Below, piece after piece: positions 7,884-61,303 of a stretch of 64,000 bases of DNA. Numbering within the stretch: position 1 is the stretch's first letter; every line of letters begins with the position of its first letter. Below the pieces are notes generated by a model. That model was not told the origin of the DNA and ran no database searches. It saw only the letters and a list, made by a program, of their open reading frames with translations. Source of the stretch: Aphrocallistes beatrix (taxonomy: Eukaryota > Porifera > Hexactinellida > Sceptrulophora > Aphrocallistidae). Made by a program: the position numbers and the translations under genes. The stretch is from assembly GCA_963281255.1 (NCBI GenBank), contig OY725491.1, positions 1,550,001 to 1,614,000 on the forward strand. Direction: 5' to 3'.

Positions 7884-9956
7884 ATGGCACATGAAGAGAT
7901 TCCTTTAACTGATATCAAAAAAGAGCTTGATAGCGTACCAGAAATAATAGCATATGTTAACCAAGACATTAACACAGAGGAAACCGATAGAGAAAACCCA
8001 CTCCATAACGCTATAAAAAGGAAGCATATCTACACAATACAAAACCTTCTCGATGATAATGCTGATGTAAACGCTACTACATCCAATGGTTCAAATTCCT
8101 TCCACTTGGCTTGTGAATACGCAGATGCAGACACTCTGTATCTCTTAATCACAAGAGGAGGTGATGTGAACGCAAAAGATGACGAGGGCAAGACTCCTAC
8201 AATGGTGGCAGTGGATAATAGGAATGATGATTGTATCGGCATACTAGCAAGCGCAGGTGCAAATCTGGATGAGAAAAACCATGATGGAGATTCTCCATTA
8301 ATAGTGGCAGCTAGCAATGGATTCAGTAGCACAGTGAAGGAATTGATTGTTAATGGGGCATTATTTGAAGTTAAGGATGGAAATGGTAAAAATGCACTAC
8401 AGAGGGCGATAATGGAAAAGAGTGATGGAGCAGCAGCTAACATCATACGATTAGTCCTCCAGGATGAATACTTGAAACGCTACATAGATGATCCTGAGGT
8501 AGGTCTGTTGAAGATTATTCGCTGTGAGATGAAAGAAACTATGAAAGCCTTACTTGACCATGCTCTTGTCCAACACCCTAAAAAACCACACTTAGCGTTA
8601 GTAAAAACAGAATATTTTGATATTCACATAGCAGATAAGAATCATAAAAGCTCCAAAAAGAGAAATGTTTTCCTAAAACGACTAGCAGATTTGGTCGATG
8701 ATGATATTGCGTACAATGGCACTGTTCGGATACTCGTTGAAAGGAAAATGAAAAAGATCGGGAATCTGTTCCTAGTTTTCAAACTTATATTCCATTTCTT
8801 TTTCATGATAGCACTGTCGTACTCCTTGATACAGGCTTCCTATGAGAATGCCCCAGAAGCGTATACCATAAACCCTGCGAACATCATTCGAATATTTGCA
8901 GAGTTGTATGTGCTTTTTTACTTCGCATATAACTTTGCGTCTGAAGGATTTGAATTTTTTAAAATCTATAAAAATCGAATTGTCTTGAATGAGGAAGCAG
9001 GACAAAAGAAAGCTACAGCATTTGTTTTTCTTCAGACAATTGGTGAATATTTTAGTGACCTTACCAACTACTTCGACATAGTTGGCCTCTTTTCGCTTCT
9101 GATTCTAATCATTCTCCGTTTTACCAGTCAGCCCGCTCAGTGGGAATTCGCTACTATCACCAACGTCATAAACTCATTACGACTTTTTCAAGTAATCGCT
9201 CTTGTTCCTTTCATAGGCCCATACGTTAATACTTTTTTCCAAATTTTGAAATGTGAAGTTCCTCAATTTGTAGGCGGTTTTCTTCTCTATCTTTTCATGT
9301 TCGCTACCTCGTATTTTATCGCGTTACGAACTCCATACACAGCTGAAGGATTCAGAAATCAATCTCTCATGCAAGATACAGATCGAGTGCCAGGGATTGA
9401 CAACGAATTTTATTGGACGTTCGTATCTGGTGTGAGGATCTTACTAGAAGGAAACTTGTACGATGATGTGTATGTGTACCAACATTTGAACTGGTCGGCT
9501 GCCCTCCTATATATGAGTTTCCTATTCTTAACTGTTGTTATCTTCCTCAATGTCTTCATTGCTCAGCTGTCAGATAGCTACAGTGTTGTGAGAGAGAATG
9601 CAAATCGCGCGTATGCCTGGCATCGGTTAACCTTTGTTGTACAAATTCAGAAACAGTCATTGTTTGGATTTTTAAATTGTTTCAAGAGGAGACATATCAT
9701 TGGTGATATAACGATCGATAAGGACGAAATGTTCGAATATTACGGCGTCAGTTGCATTCAGAATTTGAATACCAAACATTACACAGAGGATGTCGAAGTT
9801 AAAGAATCACTGGCTTCAATACAGAATCAGCAGTTGTTCGCTCGGAAAACGCGCGAAATAGGAGCTGAAAAAATAAAAGAGTTGAATGTGAAGATTGATA
9901 ACTTGACAGAATCGTTGGATAATCTGGTGAAGTTGGTTCAAGAAAAGCTAAAATAG
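7884..9956 (+). CDS. ankyrin-repeat TRP-type cation channel A
   Basis: An intact intronless 690-codon gene. About five ankyrin repeats span residues 38-200 (e.g. NPLHNAIKRKHIYTIQNLL). A linker leads to six membrane segments, roughly 294-316, 332-357, 395-413, 420-443, 459-480 and 537-562. The S5-pore loop holds RTPYTAEGF and QSLMQDT. The pore-helix/filter region is SGVRILLEGNLY (515-526). S6 ends FLNVFIAQLSDSY and is followed by an ENANRAYAWHRL helix in the place of the TRP domain, then a C-terminal amphipathic, probably coiled-coil tail (655-690). This order matches TRPV/TRPA-type channels: tetrameric plasma-membrane cation channels with cytosolic ankyrins. The filter is not a familiar TRP filter, so ion selectivity and stimulus are unknown. 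Compared with B it lacks the SKSHARSQQVQLKDK segment. The ATG has a CAATGG context shared with B, D and E. Confidence 0.9.
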   Translation: MAHEEIPLTDIKKELDSVPEIIAYVNQDINTEETDRENPLHNAIKRKHIYTIQNLLDDNADVNATTSNGSNSFHLACEYADADTLYLLITRGGDVNAKDDEGKTPTMVAVDNRNDDCIGILASAGANLDEKNHDGDSPLIVAASNGFSSTVKELIVNGALFEVKDGNGKNALQRAIMEKSDGAAANIIRLVLQDEYLKRYIDDPEVGLLKIIRCEMKETMKALLDHALVQHPKKPHLALVKTEYFDIHIADKNHKSSKKRNVFLKRLADLVDDDIAYNGTVRILVERKMKKIGNLFLVFKLIFHFFFMIALSYSLIQASYENAPEAYTINPANIIRIFAELYVLFYFAYNFASEGFEFFKIYKNRIVLNEEAGQKKATAFVFLQTIGEYFSDLTNYFDIVGLFSLLILIILRFTSQPAQWEFATITNVINSLRLFQVIALVPFIGPYVNTFFQILKCEVPQFVGGFLLYLFMFATSYFIALRTPYTAEGFRNQSLMQDTDRVPGIDNEFYWTFVSGVRILLEGNLYDDVYVYQHLNWSAALLYMSFLFLTVVIFLNVFIAQLSDSYSVVRENANRAYAWHRLTFVVQIQKQSLFGFLNCFKRRHIIGDITIDKDEMFEYYGVSCIQNLNTKHYTEDVEVKESLASIQNQQLFARKTREIGAEKIKELNVKIDNLTESLDNLVKLVQEKLK

Positions 9957-10317
9957 TTACTGTTTCAAAGACAGCGTTTGCATGCAGTTTTTAATGTACT
10001 ACTTCTCAGGGTTCTTTCCATGTTACTTTCCATGGAAAGCATTATATTTTCAGAACTAATTATGTAAGAGATTTCCTCACAACCTGCAAGCTAGAAAATA
10101 TTTAGATCATTGTTTATATATTTTGGTGTAGTTTTAGTGTAAATATGATATGATAAATTTTTGGCTTTCGACTTTCGGGACAAATTACTCTTCCAGATCC
10201 ATCCCCTTGAATGAAACCCTGCTTTGGCATATTTCTCAAGTTTACGTGAGTCCAACGCCGGTCACCCTAGGACTCACTAGGGACCATATTAACCAGGTTT
10301 ATGATTCTGGGGATCGG
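9957..10317. other. 3' flank of gene A
   Basis: Presumed 3' UTR and spacer. The first 250 bp are a diverged relative of the B flank (both hold AGCGT(T/G)TGCATG soon after the stop). No clear AATAAA follows the stop. Confidence 0.4.
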
Positions 10318-10850: not shown

Positions 10851-10966
10851 GAAACTGGACGGAATGTTACTGATAAACAAATGAAAGAATCTAATAGAAT
10901 AACAAATTAAATTAGGACATATACAATTACTATATGATTTGCCTTTTTTACTACTGTATTTCTCAC

Positions 10967-11160
10967 TCGATTATCCGAGATAGTCAATCAATTATCCGAG
11001 ATAGTCAATCAATTATCCGAGATAGTCAATCAATTATCCGAGATAGTCAATCAATTATCCGAGATAGTCAATCAATTATCCGAGATAGTCAATCAATTAT
11101 CCGAGATGGCCAATCAATTATCCGAGATAGTCAATCAATTATCCGAGATAGTCAATTGAT
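10967..11160 (+). repeat. 21-bp tandem array, left arm
   Basis: About nine 21-bp units. Because 21 is a multiple of three, one frame stays open as SQSIIRD repeats; this is an array artefact, not a gene. Confidence 0.95.
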
Positions 11161-11310
11161 TATCTGATAAAATTTGATCCAGTTAATTTAGTGTAGATTT
11201 TAATTTTCACAATTATATGTATTCAGATACATATTTTAACAATGATTTATTTAAGAAGAATGGGGTTAAATAATCGAGTTTGATAGCTCTGGCTGGTTAT
11301 TAAATCAAAT

Positions 11311-11708: not shown

Positions 11709-12119
11709 TTCGGATAATTGATTGACTATCTCGGATAATTGATTGGCCATCTCGGATAATTGATTGACTATCTCGGATAATTGATTGACTATCTCGGATA
11801 ATTGATTGACTATCTCGGATAATTGATTGACTATCTCGGATAATTGATTGACTATCTCGGATAATTGATTGACTATCTCGGATAATTGATTGACTATCTC
11901 GGATAATTGATTGACTATCTCGGATAATTGATTGACTATCTCGGATAATTGATTGGCCATCTCGGATAATTGATTGACTATCTCGGATAATTGATTGACT
12001 ATCTCGGATAATTGATTGGCCATCTCGGATAATTGATTGACTATCTCGGATAATTGATTGACTATCTCGGATAATTGATTGACTATCTCGGATAATTGAT
12101 TGACTATCTCGGATAATCG
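11709..12119 (-). repeat. 21-bp tandem array, right arm (inverted)
   Basis: About 19-20 units of the same 21-bp repeat in inverted orientation to the left arm. A few units carry GGCCATC in place of GACTATC. The minus-strand frame reads LSEIVNQ repeats, which is an array artefact. Confidence 0.95.
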
Positions 12120-12233
12120 AGTGAGAAATACAGTAGTAGGCACCTACCTATGTTTACTAAGTAACCTAACAACTTAAATAATGCACACTAAGTCTATCAC
12201 ATCCCCCCCCCTTGAACTTATCGAGCGTGGTTG

Positions 12234-15988: not shown

Positions 15989-18109
15989 ATGGCACATGAA
16001 GAAATTCCATTAACTGATATCAAGAAAGAGCTTGATAGCATACCAGAAATAATAGCATATGTTAACCAAGACACAGAGCGAACCGATGGAGATAACCTAC
16101 TCCATAACGCTATAAAAAGGAAGCATATCTACACAATACAAAACCTTCTCGATGATAATGCTGATGTAAACGCTACTACATCCAATGGTTCAAATTCCAT
16201 TCACTTGGCTTGTGAATACGCAGATGCAGACATTCTGTATCTCTTAATCACAAGAGGAGGTGATGTGAACGCAAAAGATAACGAGGGCAAGACTCCTACA
16301 ATGGTGGCAGTGGATAATAGGAATGATGATTGTATCGGCATACTAGCAAGCGCAGGTGCAAATCTGGATGAGAAAAGCCATGATGGAGATTCTCCATTAA
16401 TAGTGGCAGCTAGCAATGGATTCAATAGTACAGTGAAGGAATTGATTGTTAATGGGGCATTATTTGAAGTTAAGGATGAAAATGGTAAAAATGCACTACA
16501 GAGGGCGATAATGGAAAAGAGTGATGGAGCAGCAGCTAACATCATACGATTAGTTCTCCAGGATGAATACTTGAAACGCTACATAGATGATCCTGAGGTA
16601 GGTCTGTTGAAGATTATTCGCTGTGAGATGAAAGAAACTATGAAGGCCTTACTTGACCATGCTCTTGTCCAACACCCTAAGGACCCACACTTAGCGTTAG
16701 TAAAAGCAGAATATTTTGATATTCACGTAGCAGATAGGAAAGATAGGAGTCATAATAGCTCAAAAAAGAGAAATGTTTTCCTAAAACGACTAGCAGATTT
16801 GGGCGATGATGATATTGCATACAATGGTACTGTTCGGATACTCGTTGAAAGGAAAATGAAAAAGATCGGGAATCTGTTCCTAGTTTTCAAGCTTCTGTTC
16901 CATTTCCTTTTTCTAATAGCACTCTCGTACTCCTTGATACAGGCTTCCTATGAGAATGCCCCAGAAGCGTATACCATAAACCCAGCGAACATCATTCGAA
17001 TATTTGCAGAGTTGTATGTGCTTTTTTACTTCGCATATAAGTTAGTGTCTGAAGGATTCGAATTTTTTAAAATCTATAAAAATCGAATTGTCTTGAATGA
17101 GGAAGCAGGACTAAAGAAAGCTACAGCATTTGTTTTTCTTCAGACAATTGGTGATTATTTAAATGACATTAACAACATTTTCGACATAGTTGGTATCTTT
17201 TCGCTTCTGATTCTAATAATTCTCCGCCTTACCAGTCAGCCCGCTCAGTGGGAATTCGCTACTATTACCAACATCATATTCTCATTACGACTTTTCCAAG
17301 AACTCGCTCTTGTTCCTTTCATAGGCCCATATGGTAATATTTTTTACCAGGTTTTGAAACGTGAAGTTCCTCAATTTGTAGGCGGTTATCTTATCCCTCT
17401 TTACATGTTCGCTACCACGTATTTTATCGCGTTACGAACTCCATACACAGCTGAAGGATTCAGAAATCAATCTCTCATGCAAGATACAGATCGAGTACCA
17501 GGGATTGACAACGAGTTTTATTGGACGTTCGTATCTGGTGTGAGAATCTTACTAGAAGGTAACTTGTACGATGATGTGTATGTGTACCAACATTTGAACT
17601 GGTCAGCTGCCCTTCTCTATATGAGTTTCCTATTCTTAACTGTTGTTGTTTTCCTCAACGTTTTCATTGCTCAGCTGTCAGATAGCTATAGTGTTGTGAG
17701 GGAGAATGCAAATCGCGCGTATGCCTGGCATCGGCTATACTTTGCTGTACAAATTCAGGAACAGTCATTGTTTGGATTTTTAAATTGTCTAAAGAGGAGA
17801 CATATCATTGGTGATATAACGATCGAGAAGGCCGAAATGTTTGAATATTATGGCGTCAGTCATATTAAGAATTTGAATACCAAACATTACACAGAGGATG
17901 TCGAAGTTAAAGAATCACTGGCTTCAATACAGAATCAGCAGTTGTTCGCTCGGAAAACGCGAGAAATATCAAAATCTCATGCGAGGTCCCAACAAGTGCA
18001 GTTGAAGGACAAAGGGGCTGAAAAAATAAAAGAATTGAATGTGAAGATTGATAACTTGACAGAATCGTTGGATAATCTGGTGAAGTTGGTTCAAGAAAAG
18101 CTAAAATAA
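15989..18109 (+). CDS. ankyrin-repeat TRP-type cation channel B
   Basis: An intact intronless 706-codon paralogue, nearly identical to gene A over the ankyrin repeats (about residues 36-200) and the pore/S6 region. It differs more in S1 to S5, e.g. DYLNDINNIFDIVGIF in S3 and GGYLIPLYMFATTY in S5. RTPYTAEGF, SGVRILLEGNLY, FIAQLSDSY and AYAWHRL are all kept. Compared with A it has 3 fewer residues near the start, 4 more in the pre-S1 linker (DRKDRSHNSS) and 15 more in the tail (SKSHARSQQVQLKDK). The tail is charged and probably a coiled coil. The leader from 15925 is shared with gene A. Its 3' half and 3' flank are duplicated at 20789-22645. Confidence 0.9.
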   Translation: MAHEEIPLTDIKKELDSIPEIIAYVNQDTERTDGDNLLHNAIKRKHIYTIQNLLDDNADVNATTSNGSNSIHLACEYADADILYLLITRGGDVNAKDNEGKTPTMVAVDNRNDDCIGILASAGANLDEKSHDGDSPLIVAASNGFNSTVKELIVNGALFEVKDENGKNALQRAIMEKSDGAAANIIRLVLQDEYLKRYIDDPEVGLLKIIRCEMKETMKALLDHALVQHPKDPHLALVKAEYFDIHVADRKDRSHNSSKKRNVFLKRLADLGDDDIAYNGTVRILVERKMKKIGNLFLVFKLLFHFLFLIALSYSLIQASYENAPEAYTINPANIIRIFAELYVLFYFAYKLVSEGFEFFKIYKNRIVLNEEAGLKKATAFVFLQTIGDYLNDINNIFDIVGIFSLLILIILRLTSQPAQWEFATITNIIFSLRLFQELALVPFIGPYGNIFYQVLKREVPQFVGGYLIPLYMFATTYFIALRTPYTAEGFRNQSLMQDTDRVPGIDNEFYWTFVSGVRILLEGNLYDDVYVYQHLNWSAALLYMSFLFLTVVVFLNVFIAQLSDSYSVVRENANRAYAWHRLYFAVQIQEQSLFGFLNCLKRRHIIGDITIEKAEMFEYYGVSHIKNLNTKHYTEDVEVKESLASIQNQQLFARKTREISKSHARSQQVQLKDKGAEKIKELNVKIDNLTESLDNLVKLVQEKLK

Positions 18110-19242
18110 TTACCAAGATATTTCCAAGATAGCGTGTGCATGTAGCTATTAATATTGTAGGTTTTTCCCGGGGTATTTGCATGTTTATCTCCATGGAAAC
18201 TTTTTATAGAAGCTTTTTATGTGAGAAATATCCCCACTAGACTGCAAGCTCGAAAACTTTTAGAGCAAATGTTTAGTTACTAGGTAATATAATGTGTGTA
18301 GTTTTTGATATGATAAAATTATAAGCTGTCAGTAATTTGGTGATCATTAAACATTGTGTCTGTTTTCAATTTTGCTGTCTAAAAGGGTGAAATCGAAATT
18401 TTTTCGAACTTTCAATGTAAATTACTTACACAATCTTTAGGCATAAATTCAGTGGCGGGCAGGATTTTTGAGTCTCTCTTGTATGAAACCCTGCACTAGG
18501 TTCTGCTAGTACAAATTTGATGATAATTTATATAGCAAATAAAGCAGTTTCCCTCTGTCTTTCGAAGCATTCACCACCCAGGAATCTCACAAATGCACCG
18601 CGAATCCAAGTGAGTCTAGTCTAGTATATTGGAATTTATTCAAAGAAGAACTGTGTCAGACTAAACTCACTTAGCATCGCGGCACATTTACGGGATTTTG
18701 GGATGGTAAATGCTTGGAAAGACAATATATGTCGACCAGTGTTAAATTATGTTCGAAGTCTTTTGAGTGTATATCTCCCTAAATGTTGTTAATAATTTAC
18801 AACCCTATAATTGATAAAGTCTGTCAAATTACCAATATATTAATTTTAATAATACAAGTACTAACCCAGCCATTTATCCACTCCAGTCTTCATGAACTAT
18901 ACTATATGTTTCAGGACCGATGGAATAGCACAGTTAAGTCATTAGAAATATAAATGCCATTTGGGTAGGAGAATAAAGTACTCAATCCATCCAAACTTGG
19001 ATGTTGATTCAACTATTAATTAATTATGTGACATTAGTACATACAAGTGACAATTACCCAAAACCTGTTGATGTCTCATTATGTCAGAGATAAATCTATC
19101 AATTAATCAATCAACTTTATTAATCTCGGGCAGAATCTAATTAAGAAAACATGAAATAAAGTTGAGAGAGTTCAAAGAGGTCAAATGTAAAATAAGAAAA
19201 CACATTTTAAATATACAAAATAAGCAAATATGTTCTAACTTA
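18110..19242. repeat. 3' flank of B, duplicated at 21519-22645
   Basis: More than 1.1 kb, nearly identical to the 3' flank of the truncated copy. It includes the presumed 3' UTR with TATAGCAAATAAAGCAG near 18530, a candidate polyadenylation signal (AATAAA) kept in both copies. Only scattered substitutions separate the copies, which suggests a recent duplication or gene conversion. Confidence 0.9.
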
Positions 19243-20140
19243 CAGACTTGCCGTGGATATGGATATCCATGGATGGATTGGTCATATCCATGGATATCGT
19301 GGATATCCATGGGCATCGTGGATATCCATGGGCATCGTGGATATCCATAGGATATTCTGGATGTCCTCTGTATGGTTGTACTAATAGGAATATTTCGACA
19401 GTGAATGGTTGTTGTAGGAATTATTGTTGCTAAAGGATAAACAATAGGGATACTGTTATAATTAAATTAGCAATATACATATATATATAGTACTAAGTAC
19501 ACGTACTAGTGTTGTTGTTGAAGACATATATATTGTGATTGTTGAAAACTTGCAAGTATAACCACAACAATGTTATGAAGTCGCATATGCGTGTATAAGT
19601 ATATAAACTTGTCAATGATAACCAACTTTACTTATGGAATTTCAAGAAATCAGTCGCGATTGCATTAATGGAAGACTTAGGGATAACTCGGCTAGCTACA
19701 AAGATGTACCGGCATCTCACAACATGAACAACGTGAATGCCAAAGCGATCTACCTCACTGAGGAAAAGAAATACGCGCCGTATCTCTCGTGTGGATATTG
19801 TATTAAAACATTCGTGTGGTACAAATTCAGTAAAGGAAAATGGGTAAACCAGAGAAAAGTATATCACAATAATCGAAGCTGGGAATTGTAATCGAGCCTG
19901 AGGAAGTTGCGAAGTTTAGTATATGAATATATTTTCATTAGTAATCTAGTACATCTACATAGCGGTTACCTGTACATACTAGTAATAGACACTACTAGCC
20001 ACCAAAGTTGTTCTAGGTCTTTGAAATATTCATGGATATCCATGGATATCCTGGTTTTTGAATATCCATGGATATCCATGGATATCCACGCAAAAATGAC
20101 ATGGATATGGATGGGATTTTTCTCATCCACGGCAAGCCTG
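19243..20140. mobile_element. hAT-type element, 898 bp, with empty site in paralogous DNA
   Basis: The ends are CAGACTTGCCGTGGAT and ATCCACGGCAAGCCTG. The target duplication CTAACTTA is at 19235-19242 and 20141-20148. The duplicated DNA at 22646-22653 carries a single CTAACTTA without the element. Subterminal regions contain repeated GGATATCCATGG palindromes. The centre holds an ATG-started frame of unknown function. Confidence 0.93.
19634..19891 (+). CDS. small unknown ORF inside the hAT element
   Basis: 85 codons from ATG: MEFQEISRDCINGRLRDN near the start and a CGYCIKTFVWYKFSKGKW stretch. The C-x-x-C is slightly suggestive of a zinc finger (hAT transposases often start with a BED finger), but the later His/His pair is not convincing. 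An overlapping opposite-strand frame is of similar length, so a chance ORF is possible. Confidence 0.25.
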   Translation: MEFQEISRDCINGRLRDNSASYKDVPASHNMNNVNAKAIYLTEEKKYAPYLSCGYCIKTFVWYKFSKGKWVNQRKVYHNNRSWEL

Positions 20141-20148
20141 CTAACTTA

Positions 20149-20393
20149 CCGCATCATTACAGCACTAAGGCTTGCATTAACAGAATTAGCAAAATCATAA
20201 TCTTTAGTAATCTTTAATTAATTTGACGAACTTAATACTAAATTAGTAATAGATAATCTTGCAACAGAATCAGCAAGATGTGCATTACATCTAAAGGATA
20301 TAACCGTTGCTAGCCACAAATAAGTCTGATACTTACTTGTAGATACTACAGTTAAATACAAAAATGAGAAATTAGCAAAATCAGCAAACTCCA
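20149..20393. repeat. copy of the DNA upstream of gene D (matches 22654-22897)
   Basis: Nearly identical to the 250 bp in front of gene D, ending just before the D TATA box. At 20393/20394 it jumps directly into D coding sequence. Confidence 0.9.
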
Positions 20394-20588
20394 CGATGAC
20401 GATGATAACATTGATGATGGCAGCATAGAACGTATCGACACAGCATATCAACTACGCAAATCCGTTAAGAGAGAGAATATCCACTCAATACGATGGTTAC
20501 TCAAAAATAAGTTAATGCAAGTAAATCAGTTCACTTAGTTTGCCAAGAAGCAGAAGAAGATATATTGTACTACTTGGTTACCAGTGGA
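20394..20588 (+). pseudogene. fragment of a D-type channel gene
   Basis: Matches codons about 66-131 of gene D (23180-23376). The promoter, ATG and first ~65 codons are lost by a deletion of about 280 bp relative to D, a one-base deletion in the AAAAATAAGTTAATGC stretch breaks the frame, and the match stops within the codons for SGG. No product is expected. Confidence 0.92.
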
Positions 20589-20788
20589 TAGTTATGGTTA
20601 CCAGTGAATAATTTGAGCATATTTTGAGCATAATTTGAGCATATTTTGAGCATATTTTGTAGCATAGGTTGACAAGATGTTGATAAAATTGATAAAGCAG
20701 ATTTATTGAGGAAAAAAACGTATTTATAGTCAACTCCGCTTAATCGAAACACCGGTTGATCGGGACAACTGCTTAATTGGGTTTTTAT
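20589..20788. repeat. junction filler from the region upstream of gene A
   Basis: TTGAGCAT tandem repeats followed by a truncated pogo-like MITE, matching 6165-6400 in order. It joins the D fragment to the truncated channel copy and marks a deletion from a gene-A-like 5' region into the S5 codons. Confidence 0.85.
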
Positions 20789-21518
20789 AGGCGGTTTTCT
20801 TCTCTATCTTTCCATGTTCGGTACCTCCTATTTTATCACGTTACGAACTCCATACACAGCTGAAGGATTCAGAAATCAATCTCTCATGCAAGATACATAT
20901 CGAGTTCCAGGGATTGACAACGAATTTTATTGGACATTTGCATCTGGTGTGAGAATCTTACTAGAAGGAAACTTGTACGATGATGTGTATGTGTACCAAC
21001 ATTTGAACTGGTCAGCTGCCCTCCTATATATGAGTTTCCTATTCTTAACTGTTGTTATCTTCCTCAATGTCTTCATTGCTCAGCTGTCAGATAGCTACAG
21101 TGTTGTGAGAGAGAATGCAAATCGCGCGTATGCCTGGCATCGGCTATACTTTGCTGTACAAATTCAGGAACAGTCATTGTTTGGATTTTTAAATTGTTTC
21201 AAGAAGAGACATATCATTGGTAATATAACGATCGAGAAGGCCGAAATGTTCGAATATTATGGTGTCAGTCACATTAAGAATTTGAATGCCAAACATTACA
21301 CAGAGGATGTCGAAGTTAAAGAATCACTGGCTTCAATACAGAATCAGCAGTTGTTTGCTCGGAAAACGCGAGAAATATCAAAATCTCATGCGAGGTCCCA
21401 ACAAGTGCAGTTGAAGGACAAAGGTGCTGAAAAAATAAAAGAATTGAATGTGAAGATTGATAACTTGACAGAATCGTTGGATAATCTGGTGAAGTTGGTT
21501 CAAAAAAAGCTAAAATAA
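20789..21518 (+). pseudogene. 5'-truncated A/B-type channel copy (S5 to C-terminus)
   Basis: Homology starts within S5 (GGFLLYL) and runs in frame to the normal stop. An ATG at 20814 would give 234 codons covering the end of S5, the pore loop (RTPYTAEGF, SGVRILLEGNLY), S6, the TRP-like helix and the full B-type tail including SKSHARSQQVQLKDK. The ankyrin domain and S1-S4 are gone. The 5' end resembles gene A (GGFLLYL) while the tail and 3' flank resemble B, so it is a hybrid or descends from a third copy. The reading frame is intact, so expression as a pore-only fragment cannot be excluded, but it has no recognisable promoter. Confidence 0.85.
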
Positions 21519-22645
21519 TTACCAAGATATTTCCAAGATAGCGTGTGCATGTAGTTATTAATATTGTAGGTTTTTCCCGGGGTATTTGCATGTTTATCTC
21601 CATGGAAACTTTTTATAGAAGCTTTTTATGTGAGAAATATCCCCACTAGACTGCAAGCTCGAAAAACTTTTAGAGCAAATGTTTAGTTACTAGGTAATAT
21701 AATGTGTGTAGTTTTTGATATGATAAAAATATAAGCTGTCAGTAATTTGGTGATCATTAAACATTGTGTCTGTTTTCAATTTTGCTATCTAAAAGGGTGA
21801 AATCGAAATTTTTTCGAACTTTCAAGGTAAATTACTTACACAATCTTTAGGCATAAATTCAGTGGCGGGAAGGGTTTTTGAGTTCCTCTTGTATGAAATC
21901 CTGTACTAGGTTCTGCTAGTACAAATTTGATGATAATTTATATAGCAAATAAAGCAGTTTGCCTCTGTCTTTCGAAGCATTCACCACCCAGGAATCTCAC
22001 AAATGCACCGCGAATCCAAGTGAGTCTAGTCTAGTATATTGGAATTTATTTAAGCAAGAACTGTGTCAGACTAAACTCACTTAGCATCGCGGCACATTTA
22101 CGGGATTTTTGGATGGTAAATGCTTGGAAAGACAATATATGTCGACCAGTGTTAAATTATGTTCGAAGTCTTTTGAGTGTATATCTCCCTAAATGTTGTT
22201 AATAATTTACAACCCTATAATTGATAAAGTCTGTCAAATTACCAATATATTAATTTTAATAATACAAGTACTAACCCAGCCATTTATCCACTCCAGTCTT
22301 CATGAACTATACTATATGTTTCAGGACCGATGGAATAGCACAGTTAAGTCATTAGAAATATAAATGCCATTTGGGTAGGAGAATAAAGTACTCAATCCAT
22401 CCAAACTTGGATGTTGATTCAACTATTAATTAATTATGTGACATTAGTACATACAAGTGACAATTACCCAAAACCTGTTGATGTCTCATTATGTCAGAGA
22501 TAAATCTATCAATTAATCAATCAACTTTATTAATTTCGGGCAGAATTTAATTAAGAAAACATGAAATAAAGTTGAGAGAGTTCAAAGAGGTCAAATGTAA
22601 TATAAGAAAACACATTTTAAATATACAAAATAAGCAAATACGTCA
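21519..22645. repeat. duplicate of the B 3' flank
   Basis: Matches 18110-19242 along its length, then continues through the empty hAT site into the gene D promoter. Confidence 0.9.
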
Positions 22646-22911
22646 CTAACTTACCGCATCATTGCAGCACTAAGGCTTGCATTAACAGAATTAGCAAAAT
22701 TAACAAAACACTTTAGTAATCTTTAATTAATTTGACGAACTTAATACTAAATTAGTAATAGATAATCTTGCAACAGAATCAGCAAGATGTGCATTACATC
22801 TAAAGGATATAACCGTTGCTAGCCACAAATAAGTCTGATACTTACTTGTAGATACTACAGTTAAATACAAAAATGAGAAATTAGCAAAATCAGCAAATTC
22901 CACTTATTACG

Positions 22912-22984: not shown

Positions 22985-25438
22985 ATGGCACAAAGTTTGA
23001 ACATGGAGTCAATAGAGGAGCTGGTAGGGGATAAGGACAGAAATGAAGTAATCGAAAATTGTCAACATTCAACGTTCGAATTGCCACCTATTATGAACTA
23101 TAAAGTTCCTTTGAATGATAATACAAATGATTACGAGACTAATAATGAAGAATTAATAGCATATGGTGATGGTGTTTTCAACGATGACGATGATAACATT
23201 GATTATGGCGGCATAGAACGTATCGACACAGCATGTCAACTACGTAAATCTGTTAAGAGAAAGAATATCCACTCAATACGATGGTTACTCAAAAATAAAG
23301 TTAATGCAAGTAAATCAGTTCACTCAGTTTGCCAAGAAGCAGAAGAAGATATATTGTACTACTTGGTTACCAGTGGAGGGGTTGACGTAAATGCACAAGT
23401 TCAAGATGGGAAGACTTTAACAGTGATTGCAGCAGAGAATGGAAATGATGGCTGTATCGGCATACTAGCAAGTGCAAATGCTAATCTTGATGAGAAGGAT
23501 AGTAATGGAGATTCTCCTTTAATAATCGCAGCAAGCAAAGGACACGCTAGTACAGTGAAGGAACTCCTCACTAATGGAGCGTCGTTTGAAGTTAAAGATA
23601 GAGATGGTAAAAATGCACTACAGAGGGCGATATTGAGTAATAGTGATGAAGCAGCAGCTAATATCATACGATTGGTTCTCCAGGAGGAATACTTGAGAAA
23701 TTACATAGATAAGCCTGATGTAGGTCTGTTGAAGATTGTTCGATGGAAAATGAAAGAAAGTCTGAAGGCCATACTTGATCAGATGTTAGTTCAAGTCCCC
23801 ACCGATCAAACGAAATCAGAATCCTCGCTGTTCCGCATTAAAAAAATCAAAAACAAACAAGAATTCAGCACTGTAGTTCAAACAAAATATATTGATTTTG
23901 ATCACTCACACAAACAAAATCACAATACCGAAAATGACTCAGATTATAGCGAAAAAAGACAATATTTCCTGAAGCGGATACTAGACATGTGGGATGAACC
24001 ACTTGCATACACGGGCACCGTTCGGATACTAACAGATAAGAAAATGACAAAATACGGAAACTGGTATTTGTTTTTCAAAATTCTGTTCCATTTCTTCTTC
24101 GTCTTGGCACTTTCCTATTCCCTGATACAAGCTACCTATGAAAATGTTCCAAGAGATTCATATACACGAAGTGCAAGAAACATAATTCGAATATTCACAG
24201 AGTTATATGTACTTTTGTACTTTGCATTCAATATCGCGGCTGAGGTATTCGAACTTTTCCGTATATTTCAAAATCGATCCATTCTGAACAAAGAAAATCT
24301 ACAGGATCAAATCTTCATCAAAAGAAATAAAAAGAAAAATGATCCAGAGAATGAAGGAAAAAAGAAAGATACATCAATTCTATGGACAATATTACAAACA
24401 CTCGGTGATTATTTTAGTGACACTACGAAATATTTCGAGATAGTGGGACTCGTTTCGCTGCTATTTGTAATTATCCTTCGTCTCTCCAAGCAACCTACCC
24501 AGTGGGAATTCGCGACTATTACCAACCTCATAAATGCAATGAGACTTTTTCAGTTAGTCGCCATTGTACCTTACATAGGTCCATACGCCAACATATTTTT
24601 CCAGATCTTGAAACGTGAAGTTCCTAAATTCTTAGGTCTTTACTCTATTTATCTTTTCATGTTCGCAACCTCATATTTCATTGCATTGCGAACTCCATAC
24701 ACAGCTGAAGGATTCAGAAATCAATCTCTAATGCAGGATACAGATCGAGTACAAGGTGTTGACAATGATATTCAATGGACTTTCTTGTCAGGTATTCGGA
24801 TCCTACTCGAAGGGAATCTGTACGAAGATGAGTATTTATACAAACATTTGAATTGGTCAGCTGCTCTACTCTATCTATTTTTTCTATTCTTAACAGCTGT
24901 TGTTTTCCTCAACATATTCATTGCTCAGTTGTCAGATAGCTACAGTGAGGTGAAGGAGAATGCAGAGCGCGCGTATGCTTGGCATAGGTTGAATTTCATT
25001 GTGCACATTCAAACAAATTCCTTACTCACACTATTTAATTGCTACATGAATAAACTTTTTTTTGGAGATATAACGATCGAAAAAGATGAAATGCGCGAAT
25101 ATTACGGCATTGATTGCATTAAGAAACTGAATACTAAACATTTTACAGAAAAAATTGAAGTGAAAGCAATGCTCGCTTCAATTCAAAATCAGCAAATCTA
25201 CGATCGGAAAACGCGGGAAATATCAAAATCTCATGCGAAAGTTCAACACACGGAATTGAAAGATACAGGTATTGTAAAAATTAGAGAATTGAAAGATAAC
25301 ATCGACACCCTAACAACATCAATGACGAAACTAGTGCATGAAGTACAAGAAATGGGGGAGAGGGAGGTAAGGCAAGAAGAGAAATTTACAAAATCTCTAG
25401 ATGGTCTGATGAAATTGATCCAAGAGAAGCTTCAATGA
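22985..25438 (+). CDS. ankyrin-repeat TRP-type cation channel D
   Basis: An intact intronless 817-codon gene with the same architecture as A/B but clearly diverged. An acidic N-terminal extension (about 1-80, with a DDDD run) precedes four to five ankyrin repeats (about 84-240). Six membrane segments lie near 357-380, 396-420, 482-500, 507-530, 547-568 and 624-648. The S2-S3 loop is longer (about 430-470) and very basic, with KRNKKKNDPENEGKKKD. The pore region retains RTPYTAEGF and SGIRILLEGNLY; S6 keeps FIAQLSDSY, and then AYAWHRL follows. The C-terminal coiled coil (about 755-817) is longer than in A/B and ends KLIQEKLQ. As in A, the pore and post-S6 helix are the best conserved parts. An ATG with CACAATGGC context follows the TATA box closely. 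Confidence 0.9.
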   Translation: MAQSLNMESIEELVGDKDRNEVIENCQHSTFELPPIMNYKVPLNDNTNDYETNNEELIAYGDGVFNDDDDNIDYGGIERIDTACQLRKSVKRKNIHSIRWLLKNKVNASKSVHSVCQEAEEDILYYLVTSGGVDVNAQVQDGKTLTVIAAENGNDGCIGILASANANLDEKDSNGDSPLIIAASKGHASTVKELLTNGASFEVKDRDGKNALQRAILSNSDEAAANIIRLVLQEEYLRNYIDKPDVGLLKIVRWKMKESLKAILDQMLVQVPTDQTKSESSLFRIKKIKNKQEFSTVVQTKYIDFDHSHKQNHNTENDSDYSEKRQYFLKRILDMWDEPLAYTGTVRILTDKKMTKYGNWYLFFKILFHFFFVLALSYSLIQATYENVPRDSYTRSARNIIRIFTELYVLLYFAFNIAAEVFELFRIFQNRSILNKENLQDQIFIKRNKKKNDPENEGKKKDTSILWTILQTLGDYFSDTTKYFEIVGLVSLLFVIILRLSKQPTQWEFATITNLINAMRLFQLVAIVPYIGPYANIFFQILKREVPKFLGLYSIYLFMFATSYFIALRTPYTAEGFRNQSLMQDTDRVQGVDNDIQWTFLSGIRILLEGNLYEDEYLYKHLNWSAALLYLFFLFLTAVVFLNIFIAQLSDSYSEVKENAERAYAWHRLNFIVHIQTNSLLTLFNCYMNKLFFGDITIEKDEMREYYGIDCIKKLNTKHFTEKIEVKAMLASIQNQQIYDRKTREISKSHAKVQHTELKDTGIVKIRELKDNIDTLTTSMTKLVHEVQEMGEREVRQEEKFTKSLDGLMKLIQEKLQ

Positions 25439-36434: not shown

Positions 36435-39218
36435 ATGGCACAAGTGATTAATCAAATGATCTTAATGAATGATGTAGATACAGAAGAAAATATCCAAATG
36501 AATGATGTAGATACAGAAGAAAAAGTTGAAAAAGTGAAGCCTTATTTGAATAGGTTTATGTCAAATGTGTCCGTTAATGACATAATTCCGTGGAAAGATA
36601 CGCAGGATGATTATGAAGAACTCGATAATGTACTTGTAAATTATAGCATGGATAAACTGAAAAGAATGCTACTAGGAGGTGCACCTATTCTGTATAAGAA
36701 GGACGAAAATAATTATGCGATGACACATGCAGCATTTTATACACGTGCTGACATAATAGAAATCATCATAGAGAGGTACAGCAATGAAAGAACTCCGGAA
36801 ATGGAAGGACAGTTCCGGTCACAAGCCTGTGACGCACTCTACACAGTCTGTACTTCAAATAGTGGCGAGATTGCGGAAATGCTATTACAGGCTGGTACAC
36901 CGATAATACCAAATCTGCATTTGAATAGGGCCGCAGAAAATGGGAGCAGAGCAGTATTAGATGTAATTCTCACACATCAGCCAAATATTCGCATAGATAC
37001 AAAAGATTATGAAGGAGTAACACCACTTCATAGTGCGATAACAAGAAAACATCTCCACACTGTAGAATACCTCCTAGATAAAGGTTCAGACCCAAATTTG
37101 GTCAACGACGAAGGTTTTACATCAGTTCACTTAGCATGTCAACATGCAGATGAAGATATCCTCTATCTTCTAACAGCGAGAGGTGCACTAGTAAATGTAA
37201 AGGATAGAAATGGCAAAACACCTGTGATGATTGCCGCACAAAACGGAAAGGATGGTTGCATCGGTATACTAGCAGCAGCAGGAGCTAATCTGGATCAGAA
37301 AGATAGACTTGGTAATGTCCCGTTGATAGTCGCAGCTAGTAATGGACATGCTAACACAGTAAAAGAGTTGATAATCAATGGAGCGTCATTTGATGTCACA
37401 GATAATGAGAGGTTCAATGCTCTAGAGAGGGCAATACTACTGAAAAAAGATGCAGCAGCTGCAATAATCATACGATTGGCGCCAGAAAATGACTACGTAG
37501 ATTATTATTTGCAGACTGTCGAAATCAGTTTGTTAAAAATTGTCCGATATCGGCTGATAGAAACCTTGAAAGCCCTTCTAGACCGTATGCTCGTACAGGT
37601 AGATCCTTCAAACGCACAGTGGGGAGTAGTTCGTACACGATATCTTGACGTGGACACAGAAAAAAGCATGCCTGATGATGATGGTTACCAAAAGAACAAA
37701 ACTTTCTTTCTTCAACGACTAGCAGATTTAGAAGATGAAGATATTGCATACAATGGTACTGTCCGAATACTTGTAGATAAGAAGATGAAAACTTTCGGAA
37801 ACAGAATTTTGACGGTTAAGATCACTTTTTACTTACTGTTTCTATTGGCGTTGGCATATTCTCTCATACAAGCCACATATTTCAATGCACCAAGAGATGT
37901 GTATATTCAAGGATACACTAATTTTATCCGAATTGTCACAGAATTATTCGTTATCTTTTATTTTCTTTTTAATGTCGTGACGGAGGGAGTAGAATTCTTC
38001 CGTGTAGCAAGACTCACATTCCGATATCTTGAAGATAAAAGAAAGGAGCAAAAAAAGATGCTAGATCGTGAAGAAACAATTGAAAATGCACTCAATTATG
38101 ATGACGATGATGTTGAAGAACTAATTGAAGCACAAAAGTCATCTCCCAAAATGAAACGTTCACTCAAATCAAAACTAAATGATTTAATCTGTATCCGAGT
38201 ATTCACAGATTACTTCAGTGATTATTCGAACTATTTGGACGTGATTGGATTGTCCACGCTATTAATCCTATTTATTCTTCGCGCGGCCAGTCAACCAACA
38301 CAATGGGTCTTTGCTACAATTACATTCATCGTGAATTCTCTCAGATTATTCAAGTTAATAGCACTGCTACCACGTCTGGGACCATATGCAAACATTATCT
38401 ACAAGATCCTAGTCAATGATGTGCCGCTATTCTCAGGTCTCTTCTCCATTGTATTACTAATTTTCACTGGCGCTTACTACATATCCTTGCGCACTCCTTA
38501 CACGGCTGAAGGATTCTCAAATGTGTCTCTGATGCAAGACACACAACGAGAATTAGGTGTTGACAACAGTGTACAGTGGGTGTTCCTGACTGGTGTGAGG
38601 ATACTCCTTGAGGGAAACGTGTATCAAGATCAATATGTATATCAACAACTGAACTGGTTGGCTGCCGCTATCTACCTCACTTTCTTGTTCTTAACAGTAG
38701 TTGTTTTCCTGAACGTGTTCATTGCTCAGCTGTCAGATACCTATGGTAGCGTTAAGAACAAAGCAAAACGCACATACGCTTGGCAAAGGCTAAACTTTAT
38801 TGTACAAATCCAAAGAACCTCTCTGCTCTCACTGTGCATCGATTACAGGAAAAAGTATTTCATTGATGAAATAGAAATTGGGAAAGATGAAATGTTTCAA
38901 TATTATGGAGTACATAGCATACATTCGTTAAATGTAAAAAGTTTCACAGAAGAAGTTGAAATTAAAGGGATGCTTTCTACCATCCAAAACCAGCAAATAG
39001 TAGCTCGCAAAACTCACGAAATATCAAAATCTTCTGCAAATATACTCACACCCAAATCTCAAGAAGGAACAAGTCAGGAGATGGAGGAGTTGAAAAAGAG
39101 AATCGATGATCTAGCAATGGAAATGAGGAACAAAGAGACACGATTTGAAGAGCAGTTTACAAAGTCGATGGATGTGCTAATGAAATTGATACAGGAGAAG
39201 ATTAAACAAACTGACTAA
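36435..39218 (+). CDS. ankyrin-repeat TRP-type cation channel E
   Basis: An intact intronless 927-codon gene, the largest member here. The N-terminus holds a 10-residue direct duplication (MNDVDTEEN/MNDVDTEEK). The ankyrin region is longer than in A-D: about seven to nine repeats from residue 65 to 350, including DYEGVTPLHSAITRKHLHTV. Membrane segments are at about 457-480, 494-520, 598-617, 624-647, 665-685 and 740-765. The S2-S3 loop is long and charged (about 530-585, with NYDDDDVEELIEAQ). The pore has RTPYTAEGF, SLMQDTQREL and TGVRILLEGNVY; S6 ends FIAQLSDTY and the TRP-like helix is TYAWQRL. The C-terminal coiled coil is about 880-925. The context is FCAAAATGGC-like (CTTCAAAATGGCA). Like its paralogues, its stimulus and ion selectivity cannot be read from sequence. 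Confidence 0.9.
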   Translation: MAQVINQMILMNDVDTEENIQMNDVDTEEKVEKVKPYLNRFMSNVSVNDIIPWKDTQDDYEELDNVLVNYSMDKLKRMLLGGAPILYKKDENNYAMTHAAFYTRADIIEIIIERYSNERTPEMEGQFRSQACDALYTVCTSNSGEIAEMLLQAGTPIIPNLHLNRAAENGSRAVLDVILTHQPNIRIDTKDYEGVTPLHSAITRKHLHTVEYLLDKGSDPNLVNDEGFTSVHLACQHADEDILYLLTARGALVNVKDRNGKTPVMIAAQNGKDGCIGILAAAGANLDQKDRLGNVPLIVAASNGHANTVKELIINGASFDVTDNERFNALERAILLKKDAAAAIIIRLAPENDYVDYYLQTVEISLLKIVRYRLIETLKALLDRMLVQVDPSNAQWGVVRTRYLDVDTEKSMPDDDGYQKNKTFFLQRLADLEDEDIAYNGTVRILVDKKMKTFGNRILTVKITFYLLFLLALAYSLIQATYFNAPRDVYIQGYTNFIRIVTELFVIFYFLFNVVTEGVEFFRVARLTFRYLEDKRKEQKKMLDREETIENALNYDDDDVEELIEAQKSSPKMKRSLKSKLNDLICIRVFTDYFSDYSNYLDVIGLSTLLILFILRAASQPTQWVFATITFIVNSLRLFKLIALLPRLGPYANIIYKILVNDVPLFSGLFSIVLLIFTGAYYISLRTPYTAEGFSNVSLMQDTQRELGVDNSVQWVFLTGVRILLEGNVYQDQYVYQQLNWLAAAIYLTFLFLTVVVFLNVFIAQLSDTYGSVKNKAKRTYAWQRLNFIVQIQRTSLLSLCIDYRKKYFIDEIEIGKDEMFQYYGVHSIHSLNVKSFTEEVEIKGMLSTIQNQQIVARKTHEISKSSANILTPKSQEGTSQEMEELKKRIDDLAMEMRNKETRFEEQFTKSMDVLMKLIQEKIKQTD

Positions 39219-41513: not shown

Positions 41514-42856
41514 GGAAATCATGGATTTTGATCAGAATTTGAGTGGGATTTTGATCAGAAAAACAACTGTGGATTTTGATCAGAAAATACGGATTTTGAT
41601 CAGAATTTTGAAGGAGATTAAGATCAGAATTTCATAGCCGGATTATGATCAGAAATGTAGGAATATGATCAGAAATGTGGGAATAAGATCAGAATTGGCA
41701 ACTTTGGAACAGAAATTTACATTCTGATCCAATTCCATCAACATTAGAGGAATTTGATCAGAAAAATGGGATTGTGATCAGAAAAGTGGGATTTTGATCA
41801 GAAAATATGCAGAATTATGATGAGAAATATTGGGATTTTGATCAGAAATGTCGGATTATGATCAGAAATTGTGTGGATTATGATCTGAAATTGTGTGATT
41901 ATGATCAGAAATTGTGTGGATTATGATCAGAAATGTCGGATTATGATCAGAAATTGTGTGGATTATGATCTGAAATGTCGGATTATGATCTGAAATGTCG
42001 GGTTATGATCAGAACTTGTTTCGAGGAATAGTATTATACACTTATGCTGAAAATATCAAGTTTCTCCCATTTACCAATTCTTCAATCAATTCTGAACAAC
42101 ACAAAAAACCCCAAAAAAAACAAAAAACAAATCACAGGGGTCTCCAACCCTTTATAGGGGTCTCCAACCCTTTATGCCTTGAGGGCCACATCATTAAATA
42201 AAAGTTTCATCGAGGGCCTCAACTTCCTCGATATCTATGCGAGATATTACGCTATAAGGCTATTTACTTTATTGGATTCAGAAAATTGATAAAATACTCC
42301 GAGGCCTGAAAAGAATCCTTTATAATGAGGGTATGAAACAAAAAATTGAAGAATTGGTAAATGGGAGAAACTTGATATTTTCTGCATAAGTGTATAATAC
42401 TATTCCGAAACAAGTTCTGATCATAACCCGACATTTCAGATCATAATCCACACAATTTCTGATCATAATCCACACAATTTCTGATCATAATCTGACATTT
42501 CTGATCATAATCCGACATTTCAGATCATAATCCACACAATTTCTGATCATAATCCGACATTTCTGATCATAATCCACACAATTTCTGATCACAATCCCAT
42601 TTTTCTGATCAAATTCCTCCAATGTTGATGGAATTGGATCAGAATGTAAATTTCTGTTTCAAAATTGCCAATTCTGATCTTATTCCCACATTTCTGATCA
42701 TATTCCTACATTTCTGATCATAATCCGACTATGAAATTCTGATCTTAATCTCCCTCAAAATTCTGATCAAAATCCGTATTTTCTGATCAAATTCCACAGT
42801 TGTTTTTCTGATCAAAATCCCACTCAAATTCTGATCAAAATCCATGATTTCCACAT
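41514..42856. mobile_element. large foldback element with GATCAGAA repeat arms
   Basis: Arms of roughly 550 bp (41514-42085 and about 42345-42856) are inverted copies of each other, from GGAAATCATGGATTTTGATC to the mirrored end. Both consist of some 25-30 irregular repeats of a 12-20 bp unit centred on GATCAGAA. The loop (about 42086-42344) contains a direct duplication of GGGGTCTCCAACCCTTTAT. No transposase and no clear target duplication. Confidence 0.88.
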
Positions 42857-57761: not shown

Positions 57762-57925
57762 GCAGGCCTCTCAACCAACTCTCACGATCTCGTCGTGTGT
57801 TACACGATTTCGGGTAAAATGTCACGATCTCACGACAAATCCCCCAAATCTCACGATTTGTATCAAATATCACGACGCTTCTATCAAATCTCACGATTTG
57901 CGAACTCTCTCAGGTTGAGAGCCCT
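57762..57925. mobile_element. MITE-like unit with CTCACGATTT repeats
   Basis: Inverted ends CAGGCCTCTCAACC and GGTTGAGAGCCCTG resemble hAT termini, with several TCTCACGATTTG blocks inside. No target duplication was found, so the right border may be wrong. Confidence 0.55.
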
Positions 57926-57929
57926 GCAG

Positions 57930-58933: not shown

Positions 58934-61303
58934 ATGTTTCAAAATTACTCAGATGATCAGATGTTACTTGATACATTCGAAATGAATGGCAATAGTGAAG
59001 CAAAGGGGAATACTACTAATTGCAACGTTTTGGATAAATCGGAGAGGAAGACAAAAAAGAGCGAAGTAACTATCGAGAGAGATAATGATTACTTGGCAGA
59101 TGAACTACACAAAGCAGCTGAACATGGAAACAAAGCAACAAATGGTCAAAGCAATGGAAAACATAGAGGATAACATCAATGCATTAAACGCTGAGGGATA
59201 TACTCCACTCCATTGCGCCATAAAGAATAAGCATATTCACACAGTACAATACTTGCTCGACAATAAAGCGGATGTCAACAAGATGGCAGATGATGGTAGG
59301 AATTCAGTCCATTTTGCATGTCAACACGCAGACATAGGTATACTCTACCTCTTAATTACAAGAGGAGGTGATGTCAATGCAAAGAATAGGGAAGGAAAGA
59401 CTCCCACAATGATCGCAGCAATGAAGGAAAAAGACGGTTGTATCAGCTTACTAGCAACTGCAGGTGCGAATCTGGATCAGAAAGATGATGAAGGACAGGT
59501 TCCATTAATAATCGCAGCTATCGATGGACACACTAATACTGTGAAACAGTTAATCACTAACGGAGCCTCATATGATGTCACAGATAAGTCAGGGCATAGT
59601 GCACTTGAAAGTGCTATCATTAAAAAACACGACGGAGCAGCAACCATTATGATCAGATTGGTACAACATGATTGGTATTTAAGCAAGTTGATAGAAGAAT
59701 CCAAGATAGACTTGTGCGAGATAGTTGAAAATAGCCTAAAAGAAACTCTGAAAGCATTGCTTGATCGTATGGTCATACGAAAAGATCTCCCAAATGCGAA
59801 AAGATCCCTCAAACCTTATGTTGTAGAAACAGGACATATAGACTTAGAAACAAAGAAAATCTCTGACAAAGTATACCAAAATAACAAAACATTTTTACTC
59901 AAACAAATAAGAGACCTTGAAGATGAAGATATTGCATACAATGGTACAATTCGGGTACTAGTAGATGAGAAAATGAGAAAATACGGATACGTATTTTTGG
60001 GGATCAAAATTTCGTTCAATATTCTCTTTCTACTAGCACTTGCATATTGCTTAATCCAAGCTTCTTATGAGAAATCCCCTAATAAATATAACACCAAAAA
60101 TCCACGGAACAACTTTCGAATATTTACAGAATTGTGTGTACTTTTATACTTGATATTCATCATAATCATTGAGGGAGTGGAATTATTTCGTGTAGCTAGG
60201 CTCACATTCAGTTACGCTAAAGAGAAAAAAAATGACAAAGGAAAAAATAAAAATTGTGAAGATGCACCCATTTCAAAAGTAGAAGAAATGAGAAAAAAAT
60301 TTAAAGACACAATTTTGATTCAAATATTCACTGACTACTTGACGAAACGAACTATTTAGATTTATTGTGCCTCTCTTCCCTAATAATCCTGATAATTCTC
60401 CGTCTCGCAAACCAACCCTCTGAATGGATTTTCGCTACTGTCACCTTTCTCGGGAATTCATTGAGAATCTTCAAGCTAATCACCCTCATACCATGGATTG
60501 GCCCATATGCTAATACATTTTATCAAATCTTGAAACGTGATGTCCCGCTATTTCTGACACTTTTCACTCTTTTTCTTCTCATATTCACCGGTACTTATTC
60601 CATTTCATTGCGTACTCCCTACACAGCTGAAGGATTCACAAATGCCTCTCTGATGCAAGATACCAAACGGAACAACGGCACTGACAATGGTATACAATGG
60701 GTGTTCGTATCTGGAGTGAGGGTACTCTTAGAAGGAAATGTATACGGAGACAACGATGATGATGTGTATGTATATAAACATCTGAACTGGTTAGCTGCAA
60801 TTCTCTACCTCACTTACATATTTTTAACTGCTGTTGTTTTCCTCAACATGTTTATCGCTCAGCTGTCAGCTACCTATGCGGAGGCAAAGGAAAATGCTGA
60901 ACGTGCGTATGCATGGTATAGGTTGAACTTCATTGTACAAATTAAGACAAGCTCTCTACTCTCACTCTGTTGGGACATCAAGCGTAAGATTATTCCTAAT
61001 AAAAAAAACACTAAAGAAACTAAAGAAATACATATCAATAAGGATGACTTATTTAAATATTACGGAGTACACACCATTAAAGATTTGAATACTAAATATT
61101 TCGCAGAGGATGTCGAAGTGAAAGCAATGCTCGCTTCAATTAAGAATCAGAAAATATTCGCTCAACAAACTTACGAAATGTTAAGATCTCATCAAAACAA
61201 AGCGCAATACGTGCAATCGCATGACAAAGGAAATGAGGAAATTAAAGAATTAAATAAGAAAATTGATACTCTGATGAAAATGATTGAAGAAAAAATTAAG
61301 TGA
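58934..61303 (+). pseudogene. ankyrin-repeat TRP-type channel F, two frameshifts
   Basis: A member closest to gene E, split over three frames. 58934-~59135 encodes an N-terminal extension ending ELHKAAEHGNK, matching LNRAAENGSR of E. The frame then shifts and 59085-60359 covers ankyrin repeats (EGYTPLHCAIKNKHIHTV), S1 and S2. It ends in a stop inside the sequence FTDYLTK where E has FTDYFSDYSNYLD. Homology resumes after 60340 in a third register (NYLDLL, then CLSSLIILIILRL) and runs to the normal stop through RTPYTAEGF, SGVRVLLEGNVY, FIAQLSATY and AYAWYRL. The pore-S6 loop has an acidic insertion (GDNDDD). Net, the second shift restores the first register. No splice sites explain either break well. 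Sequencing error is possible since the rest is well preserved. Confidence 0.8.

What the first reader, a model, noticed from the sequence alone, without database searches (positions are those of the whole stretch)
7884..61303. A local, one-strand family of ankyrin-TRP channels with intronless coding regions
Four intact and two broken members of one channel family lie on the same strand within 54 kb. All share RTPYTAEGF, R(I/V)LLEGN(L/V)Y, FIAQLS and a YAW-x-RL helix after S6. The pore signature LLEGN(L/V)Y is not one I recognise from the named TRP subfamilies, so this may be a lineage-specific expansion, for example of chemosensory or mechanosensory channels. Intronless coding sequence suggests an origin by retroposition followed by tandem duplication.
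Basis: partly seen in the sequence, partly recalled or inferred. Interest (0 to 1): 0.75.

Follow-up and report, generated by a model that had tools for sequence, protein, structure and literature searches.

The report
Glass sponge TRPV-like channel family
The window holds part of a gene cluster for TRPV-like ion channels whose only named relatives are in a glass sponge, an animal without neurons whose kind still fires electrical impulses, so these channels are natural candidates for sensing the dirt or touch that sets such impulses off.

The parts
7884..9956 (+). member A, intact single ORF, 690 aa, short ankyrin domain
15989..18109 (+). member B, intact single ORF, 706 aa, 89% identical to A
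20141..20588 (+). D-like 5' remnant (upstream region 20141-20394, coding pieces 20419-20588) beside fragment C
   Evidence: 96.9% and 95.5% DNA identity to 22646-22903 and 23178-23377
20814..21518 (+). member C, 3' fragment, B-like; block 20784-22654 is 96.9% identical to 17375-19243
22985..25438 (+). member D, intact single ORF, 817 aa
36435..39218 (+). member E, intact single ORF, 927 aa; modelled here
36540..37583 (+). E: ankyrin domain, residues 36-383, about ten helix pairs in the model
37785..37787 (+). E: Met451, at the place of the pre-S1 Trp of TRP channels (rTRPV1 W426)
   Evidence: alignments; 58 of 58 rows Met
38604..38618 (+). E: filter LLEGN, residues 724-728, aligned with TRPV GMGD
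38775..38789 (+). E: TRP box YAWQR, residues 781-785, Tyr781 at the place of rTRPV1 W697
39075..39212 (+). E: C-terminal long helix, residues 881-926, possible coiled coil
59085..60359 (+). member F, 5' part (broken by frameshift)
60365..61303 (+). member F, 3' part

Best explanation
These are members of a glass-sponge (hexactinellid) clade of TRPV-fold cation channels. Shown by sequence or model: cytosolic ankyrin domain, linker, six transmembrane helices with a pore helix between S5 and S6, TRP helix and a strand after it as in TRPV; an altered gating hub (pre-S1 Trp to Met, S1 Phe to Leu, TRP-box Trp to Tyr/Phe, S4-S5 Gly kept) and a mostly EGN filter; local expansion by DNA-level tandem duplication. 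Inferred: a cluster also in Oopsacas (four members on one contig length). Inferred: four subunits, perhaps mixed, form a calcium-permeable plasma-membrane channel that is not strongly voltage gated, in which the faster-changing ankyrin domain and S2-S3 loop take up the stimulus or partner and the constrained pore passes the current. Inferred, weaker: in a glass sponge they act as sensory trigger channels that depolarise the syncytium when sediment or touch arrives, upstream of the voltage-gated calcium channel thought to carry the impulse.
Against: No expression site, current or stimulus is known; one homologue (P0013) bears a Trinity transcript name, which shows transcription in some organism and nothing more. 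Most homologues have no species name. The wider profile (19 sequences, three tiers) scores an algal TRP (CrTRP1, 1.7e-12) slightly above TRPV4 (1.1e-11), so TRPV as nearest kin is not settled. With the ankyrin part included, TRPA1 leads Foldseek. Calcium permeability of an EGN filter is a guess. The ankyrin-fast, TM-slow pattern is weak in pair A-B (non-synonymous to synonymous 12:7 in ankyrin, 37:27 in TM), and the outer turret of the pore has pN/pS 0.70.
Confidence: 0.6

Rival explanations
1. They are ordinary TRPV channels: sponge TRPV orthologues that have merely diverged fast in glass sponges.
For: Only TRPV among the 50 rows; TRPV4 best; the Ephydatia paper reports differential loss of TRPV and TRPVnan among sponge lineages, so TRPV existed in sponges (PMC7385117 passages).
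Against: 5 of 12 fingerprint positions lost, including both Trp that the TRPV consensus keeps; CrTRP1 scores as well for the wider set; 15% identity in the structural match.
Confidence: 0.35
2. They belong to TRPVL or another poorly sampled Group I subfamily known from cnidarians and annelids.
For: Same fingerprint total (7), same N-F-I-A in S6 and loss of the TRP-box Trp in the TRPVL row of Table 1.
Against: TRPVL keeps the pre-S1 Trp and the pore-helix Phe; these do not (58 of 58 Met; Gly or Arg at the pore-helix place, by register). No TRPVL sequence was at hand to compare.
Confidence: 0.12
3. The family is housekeeping or intracellular (for example osmotic balance or store release) and its expansion is neutral copy-number drift in a repeat-rich region.
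For: 8 of 23 loci broken; window rich in repeats; dN/dS up to 0.72 between young copies.
Against: 15 intact copies, dN/dS under 0.5 in 12 of the 14 pairs computed; several subfamilies hold both Oopsacas and own-genome members.
Confidence: 0.25
4. Retroposition made the intronless copies.
For: All 15 intact members are single ORFs; the Aphrocallistes paper suspects retroposition for single-exon genes that break synteny (PMC10282587 section 6).
Against: Copies share non-coding flanks (80 bp upstream for A/B, 1.1 kb downstream for B/C); no A-runs within 400 bp downstream of the six window members; homologues from other genomes are long single ORFs.
Confidence: 0.08

Closest known systems
TRPV channels (TRPV1-6, Nanchung, Inactive)
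   Same: Ankyrin domain, linker, 6 TM, S4-S5 linker register (Gly, Asp, Phe kept), TRP helix, strand after it; best structural match of the channel part and best profile match of the close members
   Different: Pre-S1 Trp to Met, S1 Phe to Leu, S6 Leu to Phe, TRP-box Trp to Tyr/Phe, filter mostly EGN instead of GMGD; S2-S3 loop of tens of residues, about ten ankyrin repeats in E (TRPV six, recalled), long C-terminal helix
TRPVL
   Same: Fingerprint total of 7, N-F-I-A in S6, no TRP-box Trp (Table 1 of PMC9242649)
   Different: TRPVL keeps pre-S1 Trp and pore-helix Phe; its place 666 is Trp, here Phe
Chlamydomonas TRP1
   Same: Best PDB sequence match of the wider set (1.7e-12); fingerprint total 7; N-F-I-A in S6
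   Different: Keeps the pre-S1 Trp; its seven residues overlap only in part
TRPA1 and NOMPC
   Same: Ankyrin plus TRP layout; TRPA1 tops the Foldseek list when the ankyrin domain is included
   Different: With the channel part alone the 50 rows listed by Foldseek and by VIA are TRPV; lower ranks were not seen
Oopsacas minuta 'ankyrin repeat domain-containing 29-like', 'ankyrin' and 'ion transport domain' proteins
   Same: Same family, 43-60% identity over the channel part
   Different: Database names describe domains only; the genome paper mentions 'many hits' for TRP and does not describe them in the section read

Membership tests
[quoted passage not shown]
   7 of 12 in E: Y466, G649, F677, F750, N760, I763, A764; equal to the lowest value listed for a Group I subfamily
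Group I TRP channels | Ion_trans domain | tested here: met
   Pfam Ion_trans above cut-off in A, B, D, E; TIGR00870 trp matched at 2.6e-10 in E but at 39 bits, far under its curated cut-off of 498.75
TRPV | TRPV fold from ankyrin linker to the strand after the TRP helix | tested here: met
TRPV | All 12 fingerprint residues (TRPV row of the table) | tested here: not met
   W426, F434, F638, L678, W697 equivalents are M, L, G or R, F, Y/F (register)
TRPV | Place inside the TRPV clade in a tree with other TRP families | not tested
TRPVL | TRPVL consensus W - N G Phi F W N F I A A | tested here: not met
   Met instead of Trp at 426 in 58 of 58; Tyr or Phe in 51 of 58 (Asn in 3) at 441; Gly or Arg instead of Phe at 638; Phe instead of Trp at 666 in 58 of 58
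TRPA1 | TRPA1 fold best match for the channel part | tested here: inconclusive
   TRPA1 is first in Foldseek for the whole protein and not among the 50 rows shown for the channel part; absence from the list excludes nothing
Cation channel with sensory function | Current evoked by a physical or chemical stimulus | not testable with these tools
   needs expression

The most novel reading that the evidence does not exclude
A separate Group I TRP subfamily that exists only in glass sponges, with a gating hub rebuilt without the pre-S1 and TRP-box tryptophans, which provides the sensory trigger for the nerve-free impulses of these animals; its many paralogues mix into tetramers so that the syncytium can tell stimuli apart.
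Probability: 0.2. Interest if true: 0.85.

Novelty: new variant of a known kind. Interest (0 to 1): 0.55.

Why it matters
Glass sponges stop feeding by a calcium-dependent impulse set off by sediment or touch (PMC5095125 passages), and the one glass sponge whose ion-channel section I read has no Nav and no obvious Kv genes. The passages read name a candidate for the impulse (Cav) but no sensor for the stimulus. This family gives a short list of intact, single-ORF genes to test. It also shows a TRPV-fold channel in which tryptophans that sit in the contact patch of TRP helix, pre-S1 and S4-S5 linker are replaced together, a natural test of what that hub does.

Tried and rejected
Introns: the C4:2.05 Mb copy looked exon-like but is a broken copy with frameshifts and a repeat-rich stretch of about 1.5 kb in place of residues 489-625. 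Tier-2 copies looked split, but in the three read (L053, L056, L060) one open frame runs through a long S2-S3 loop. VIA with the whole protein listed ankyrin proteins and was set aside; TRPA1, TRPC, TRPM and TRPN do not appear among the 50 rows, which excludes nothing. NCBIfam hits to bacterial ankyrin proteins reflect generic ankyrin repeats. A bacterial promoter scan means nothing in an animal genome. The species of the window is not determined; 'glass sponge' rests on the eight named homologues. Whole-genome counts are lower bounds for large families (tool note); merging of pieces into 23 loci was by hand. Four of the 99 sequences in the filter table were not parsed.

In print: I looked with searches of the held PMC library only. 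Seen: PMC10280926 passages and section 12; PMC10282587 passages, outline and section 6; PMC7385117, PMC3890488 and PMC5095125 passages; PMC9242649 passages, section 6 and part 1 of 2 of section 7; other papers as search listings only. In what I read none describes this family, its filter or its hub. Supplementary files could not be read, so PMC10280926 or PMC7385117 may list some members there.
Full report
What is there. Four intact ORFs (A, B, D, E) with ankyrin repeats and an Ion_trans domain, a 3' fragment (C) and a frameshifted copy (F) lie on the + strand of the window. E (927 aa) has an N-terminal stretch of about 185 residues that A, B and F lack, so the ankyrin domain differs in length: about ten helix pairs in the model of E, about six inferred for A and B from the alignment.

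Where it comes from. The window is bases 1550001-1614000 of contig C4 of a 100.5 Mb assembly in 28 contigs. Of 67 proteins found with the channel part of E, eight carry a species name and all eight are Oopsacas minuta, a hexactinellid sponge; one more has a transcript name without species. Two wider searches with alignments (21 proteins, none with a species name; 79 proteins, seven of the same eight) added no species. Each search scored only the roughly 8000 candidates sharing most words, so remote relatives would be missed. Of the 87 distinct proteins, 21 are copies of this genome's own loci (99% or more); the rest, beyond Oopsacas, are from unnamed sources. Database members look like mechanical ORF calls on genomic contigs: P0075 is the 3' ORF of F read from its TTG. 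If so, the 800-900-aa homologues from other genomes are single uninterrupted frames too. Several members share one contig length (four Oopsacas members on 676369; three or four each on 1255502, 1378725, 857026 and 1375190), which suggests clusters elsewhere; contig identity is inferred from length alone.

How many. A search of the whole genome with E gave 61 matches. Taking those of at least about 45% identity and merging broken pieces by hand gives 23 loci: 17 on C4 between 1.557 and 1.905 Mb (9 on +, 8 on -), two more on C4 (2.05 and 4.39 Mb), one on C6, one on C7, two on C14. I left out C13:23260 (38%, stops). Fifteen are intact single ORFs of 690-937 aa. Eight are broken: C, F, C4:1627-1630k, C4:1639-1641k, C4:1812-1815k, C4:1902k (in-frame TGA), C4:2048-2052k and C6:736k (truncated, in-frame TAA). 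A search with a more distant member (L009 channel part) gave 97 matches at E up to 0.001, 74 places after merging, and one with a tier-3 channel gave 82 matches: the family sits inside a larger set of TRP-like genes, many of them in long open frames.

Evolution. In a tree of 101 channel parts (quick method, SH-aLRT only) Oopsacas, own-genome and unnamed sequences fall together in several subfamilies, and one clade (14 rows, support 97) holds only own-genome copies: A, B, D, E, F (P0075), L002, L004, L006 and six more. So there is an older radiation shared with Oopsacas and a younger local one. Long branches are present and the root was placed on tier 3. DNA comparison inside the window: A and B share 7804-9860/15910-17968 (93.9%); B and C share 17375-19243/20784-22654 (96.9%), 1.1 kb past the stop of B; the piece before C matches the start of D. 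The C locus is thus a D-B chimaera, as unequal exchange between neighbours would give. dN/dS is 0.36-0.72 for the seven young pairs of intact copies, 0.14-0.33 for A or B against fragment C, and 0.13-0.28 for five older pairs, of which three have dS near 2; three more pairs were saturated. By region, over the seven young pairs, which overlap: ankyrin part pN/pS 0.65, S2-S3 loop 0.58, linker 0.56, C-terminal part 0.34, S1-S2 and S3-S4 0.24, S6 plus TRP helix 0.19, pore helix plus filter pN 0 in 189 codon comparisons; but the turret has 0.70 and S5 0.37, on very little synonymous change. In three independent pairs pooled, non-synonymous to synonymous changes are 140:66 in the ankyrin part and 64:78 in the TM part (Fisher p 2.5e-5), with pair A-B showing little of it (12:7 and 37:27). 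The low synonymous change in S5 and turret (pS 0.02-0.05) may mean gene conversion.

What is odd about it. [quoted passage not shown] TRPV, TRPM and TRPC keep 12, TRPN 11, TRPA1 10, TRPY 8, TRPS, TRPVL and CrTRP1 7. Mapped through the ungapped matches (DKKMKTF to EEKWKTF of Inactive; LVDKKMKKFG to LLRDKWRKFG of TRPV4, both weak matches on their own), E reads M L Y G F (G or R, by register) F N F I A Y. Over the 58 rows of A2 (3 window, 7 other own-genome, 48 other): Met 58 of 58 at the pre-S1 Trp that every Group I row of that table keeps; Leu 56 of 58 at S1 Phe; Gly 58 of 58 at the S4-S5 Gly; Asn, Phe, Ile and Ala 58 of 58 each in S6; Tyr 31, Phe 26, His 1 at the TRP-box Trp, with a Trp two places on in 51. 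The same paper (section 7, part 1) names W426, F434, G563 and W697 as one contact patch, so three of its four partners differ. At the filter: E 47, Q 8, D 3; G 51, S 7; N 53, D 3, S 2, where TRPV has GMGD; LLEGN stands in 67 of 99 sequences tabulated, own copies counted twice and four not parsed. Tier-2 channels aligned (L053, L056, L057, L060) keep LLEGN; tier-3 channels have LVDGG or LLDGG. S4 has one to three basic residues in the 15 intact members, so strong voltage gating is unlikely (inference).

How it may work. Channel architecture and constraint are shown by model and sequence; conduction, calcium permeability and tetramer are inferred from the fold; the stimulus is unknown. Glass sponges propagate Ca-dependent impulses through a syncytium and start them on sediment or mechanical stimulus (PMC5095125 passages). 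Oopsacas lacks Nav and obvious Kv, and its authors noted many TRP hits without describing them in that section (PMC10280926 section 12). A family with a constrained pore and more changeable cytosolic parts fits a sensory array that feeds one electrical output. This is the reading I commit to (channel identity and clade about 0.85, sensory trigger about 0.4; 0.6 overall).

Verdict. New variant of a known kind.

Noticed in passing
G000:C1:6833441-6839308 (outside the window): Four Ion_trans domains in one open frame of 2203 aa, the layout of a four-domain voltage-gated Ca or Na channel without introns; a candidate carrier of the impulse.
   Followed up: no
L053, L054, L056, L057, L058, L060: A second group of channels, 30-41% identical to E; the four aligned keep the LLEGN filter; the three read have a long, charged S2-S3 cytosolic loop, with (DKS)n repeats in L053.
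   Followed up: partly
G000:C16:3891899 and C18:3076675: TRP-like channel parts inside open frames of 3884 and 3423 residues.
   Followed up: no
41513-42853: Large inverted repeat, arms of about 445 bp at 93% (41513-41957 against 42853-42410), built of TGATCAGAAATGT-like units.
   Followed up: no
10963-11164 and 11710-12124: 21-bp tandem repeats in opposite orientation; the second is an open frame of LSEIVNQ-like repeats, 153 aa, on the - strand.
   Followed up: no
2299-2856 (-): DJ-1/PfpI family ORF of 185 aa, one exon.
   Followed up: no
26628, 30517, 31031, 32692, 34925, 35493, 48498: Interspersed repeat of up to about 500 bp in both orientations, roughly 80-93% alike, probably a mobile element family.
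   Followed up: no
E residues 663-708 and equivalents: Very low synonymous change between copies in S5 and turret (pS 0.02-0.05 against 0.09-0.21 in the other regions), possible gene conversion.
   Followed up: partly
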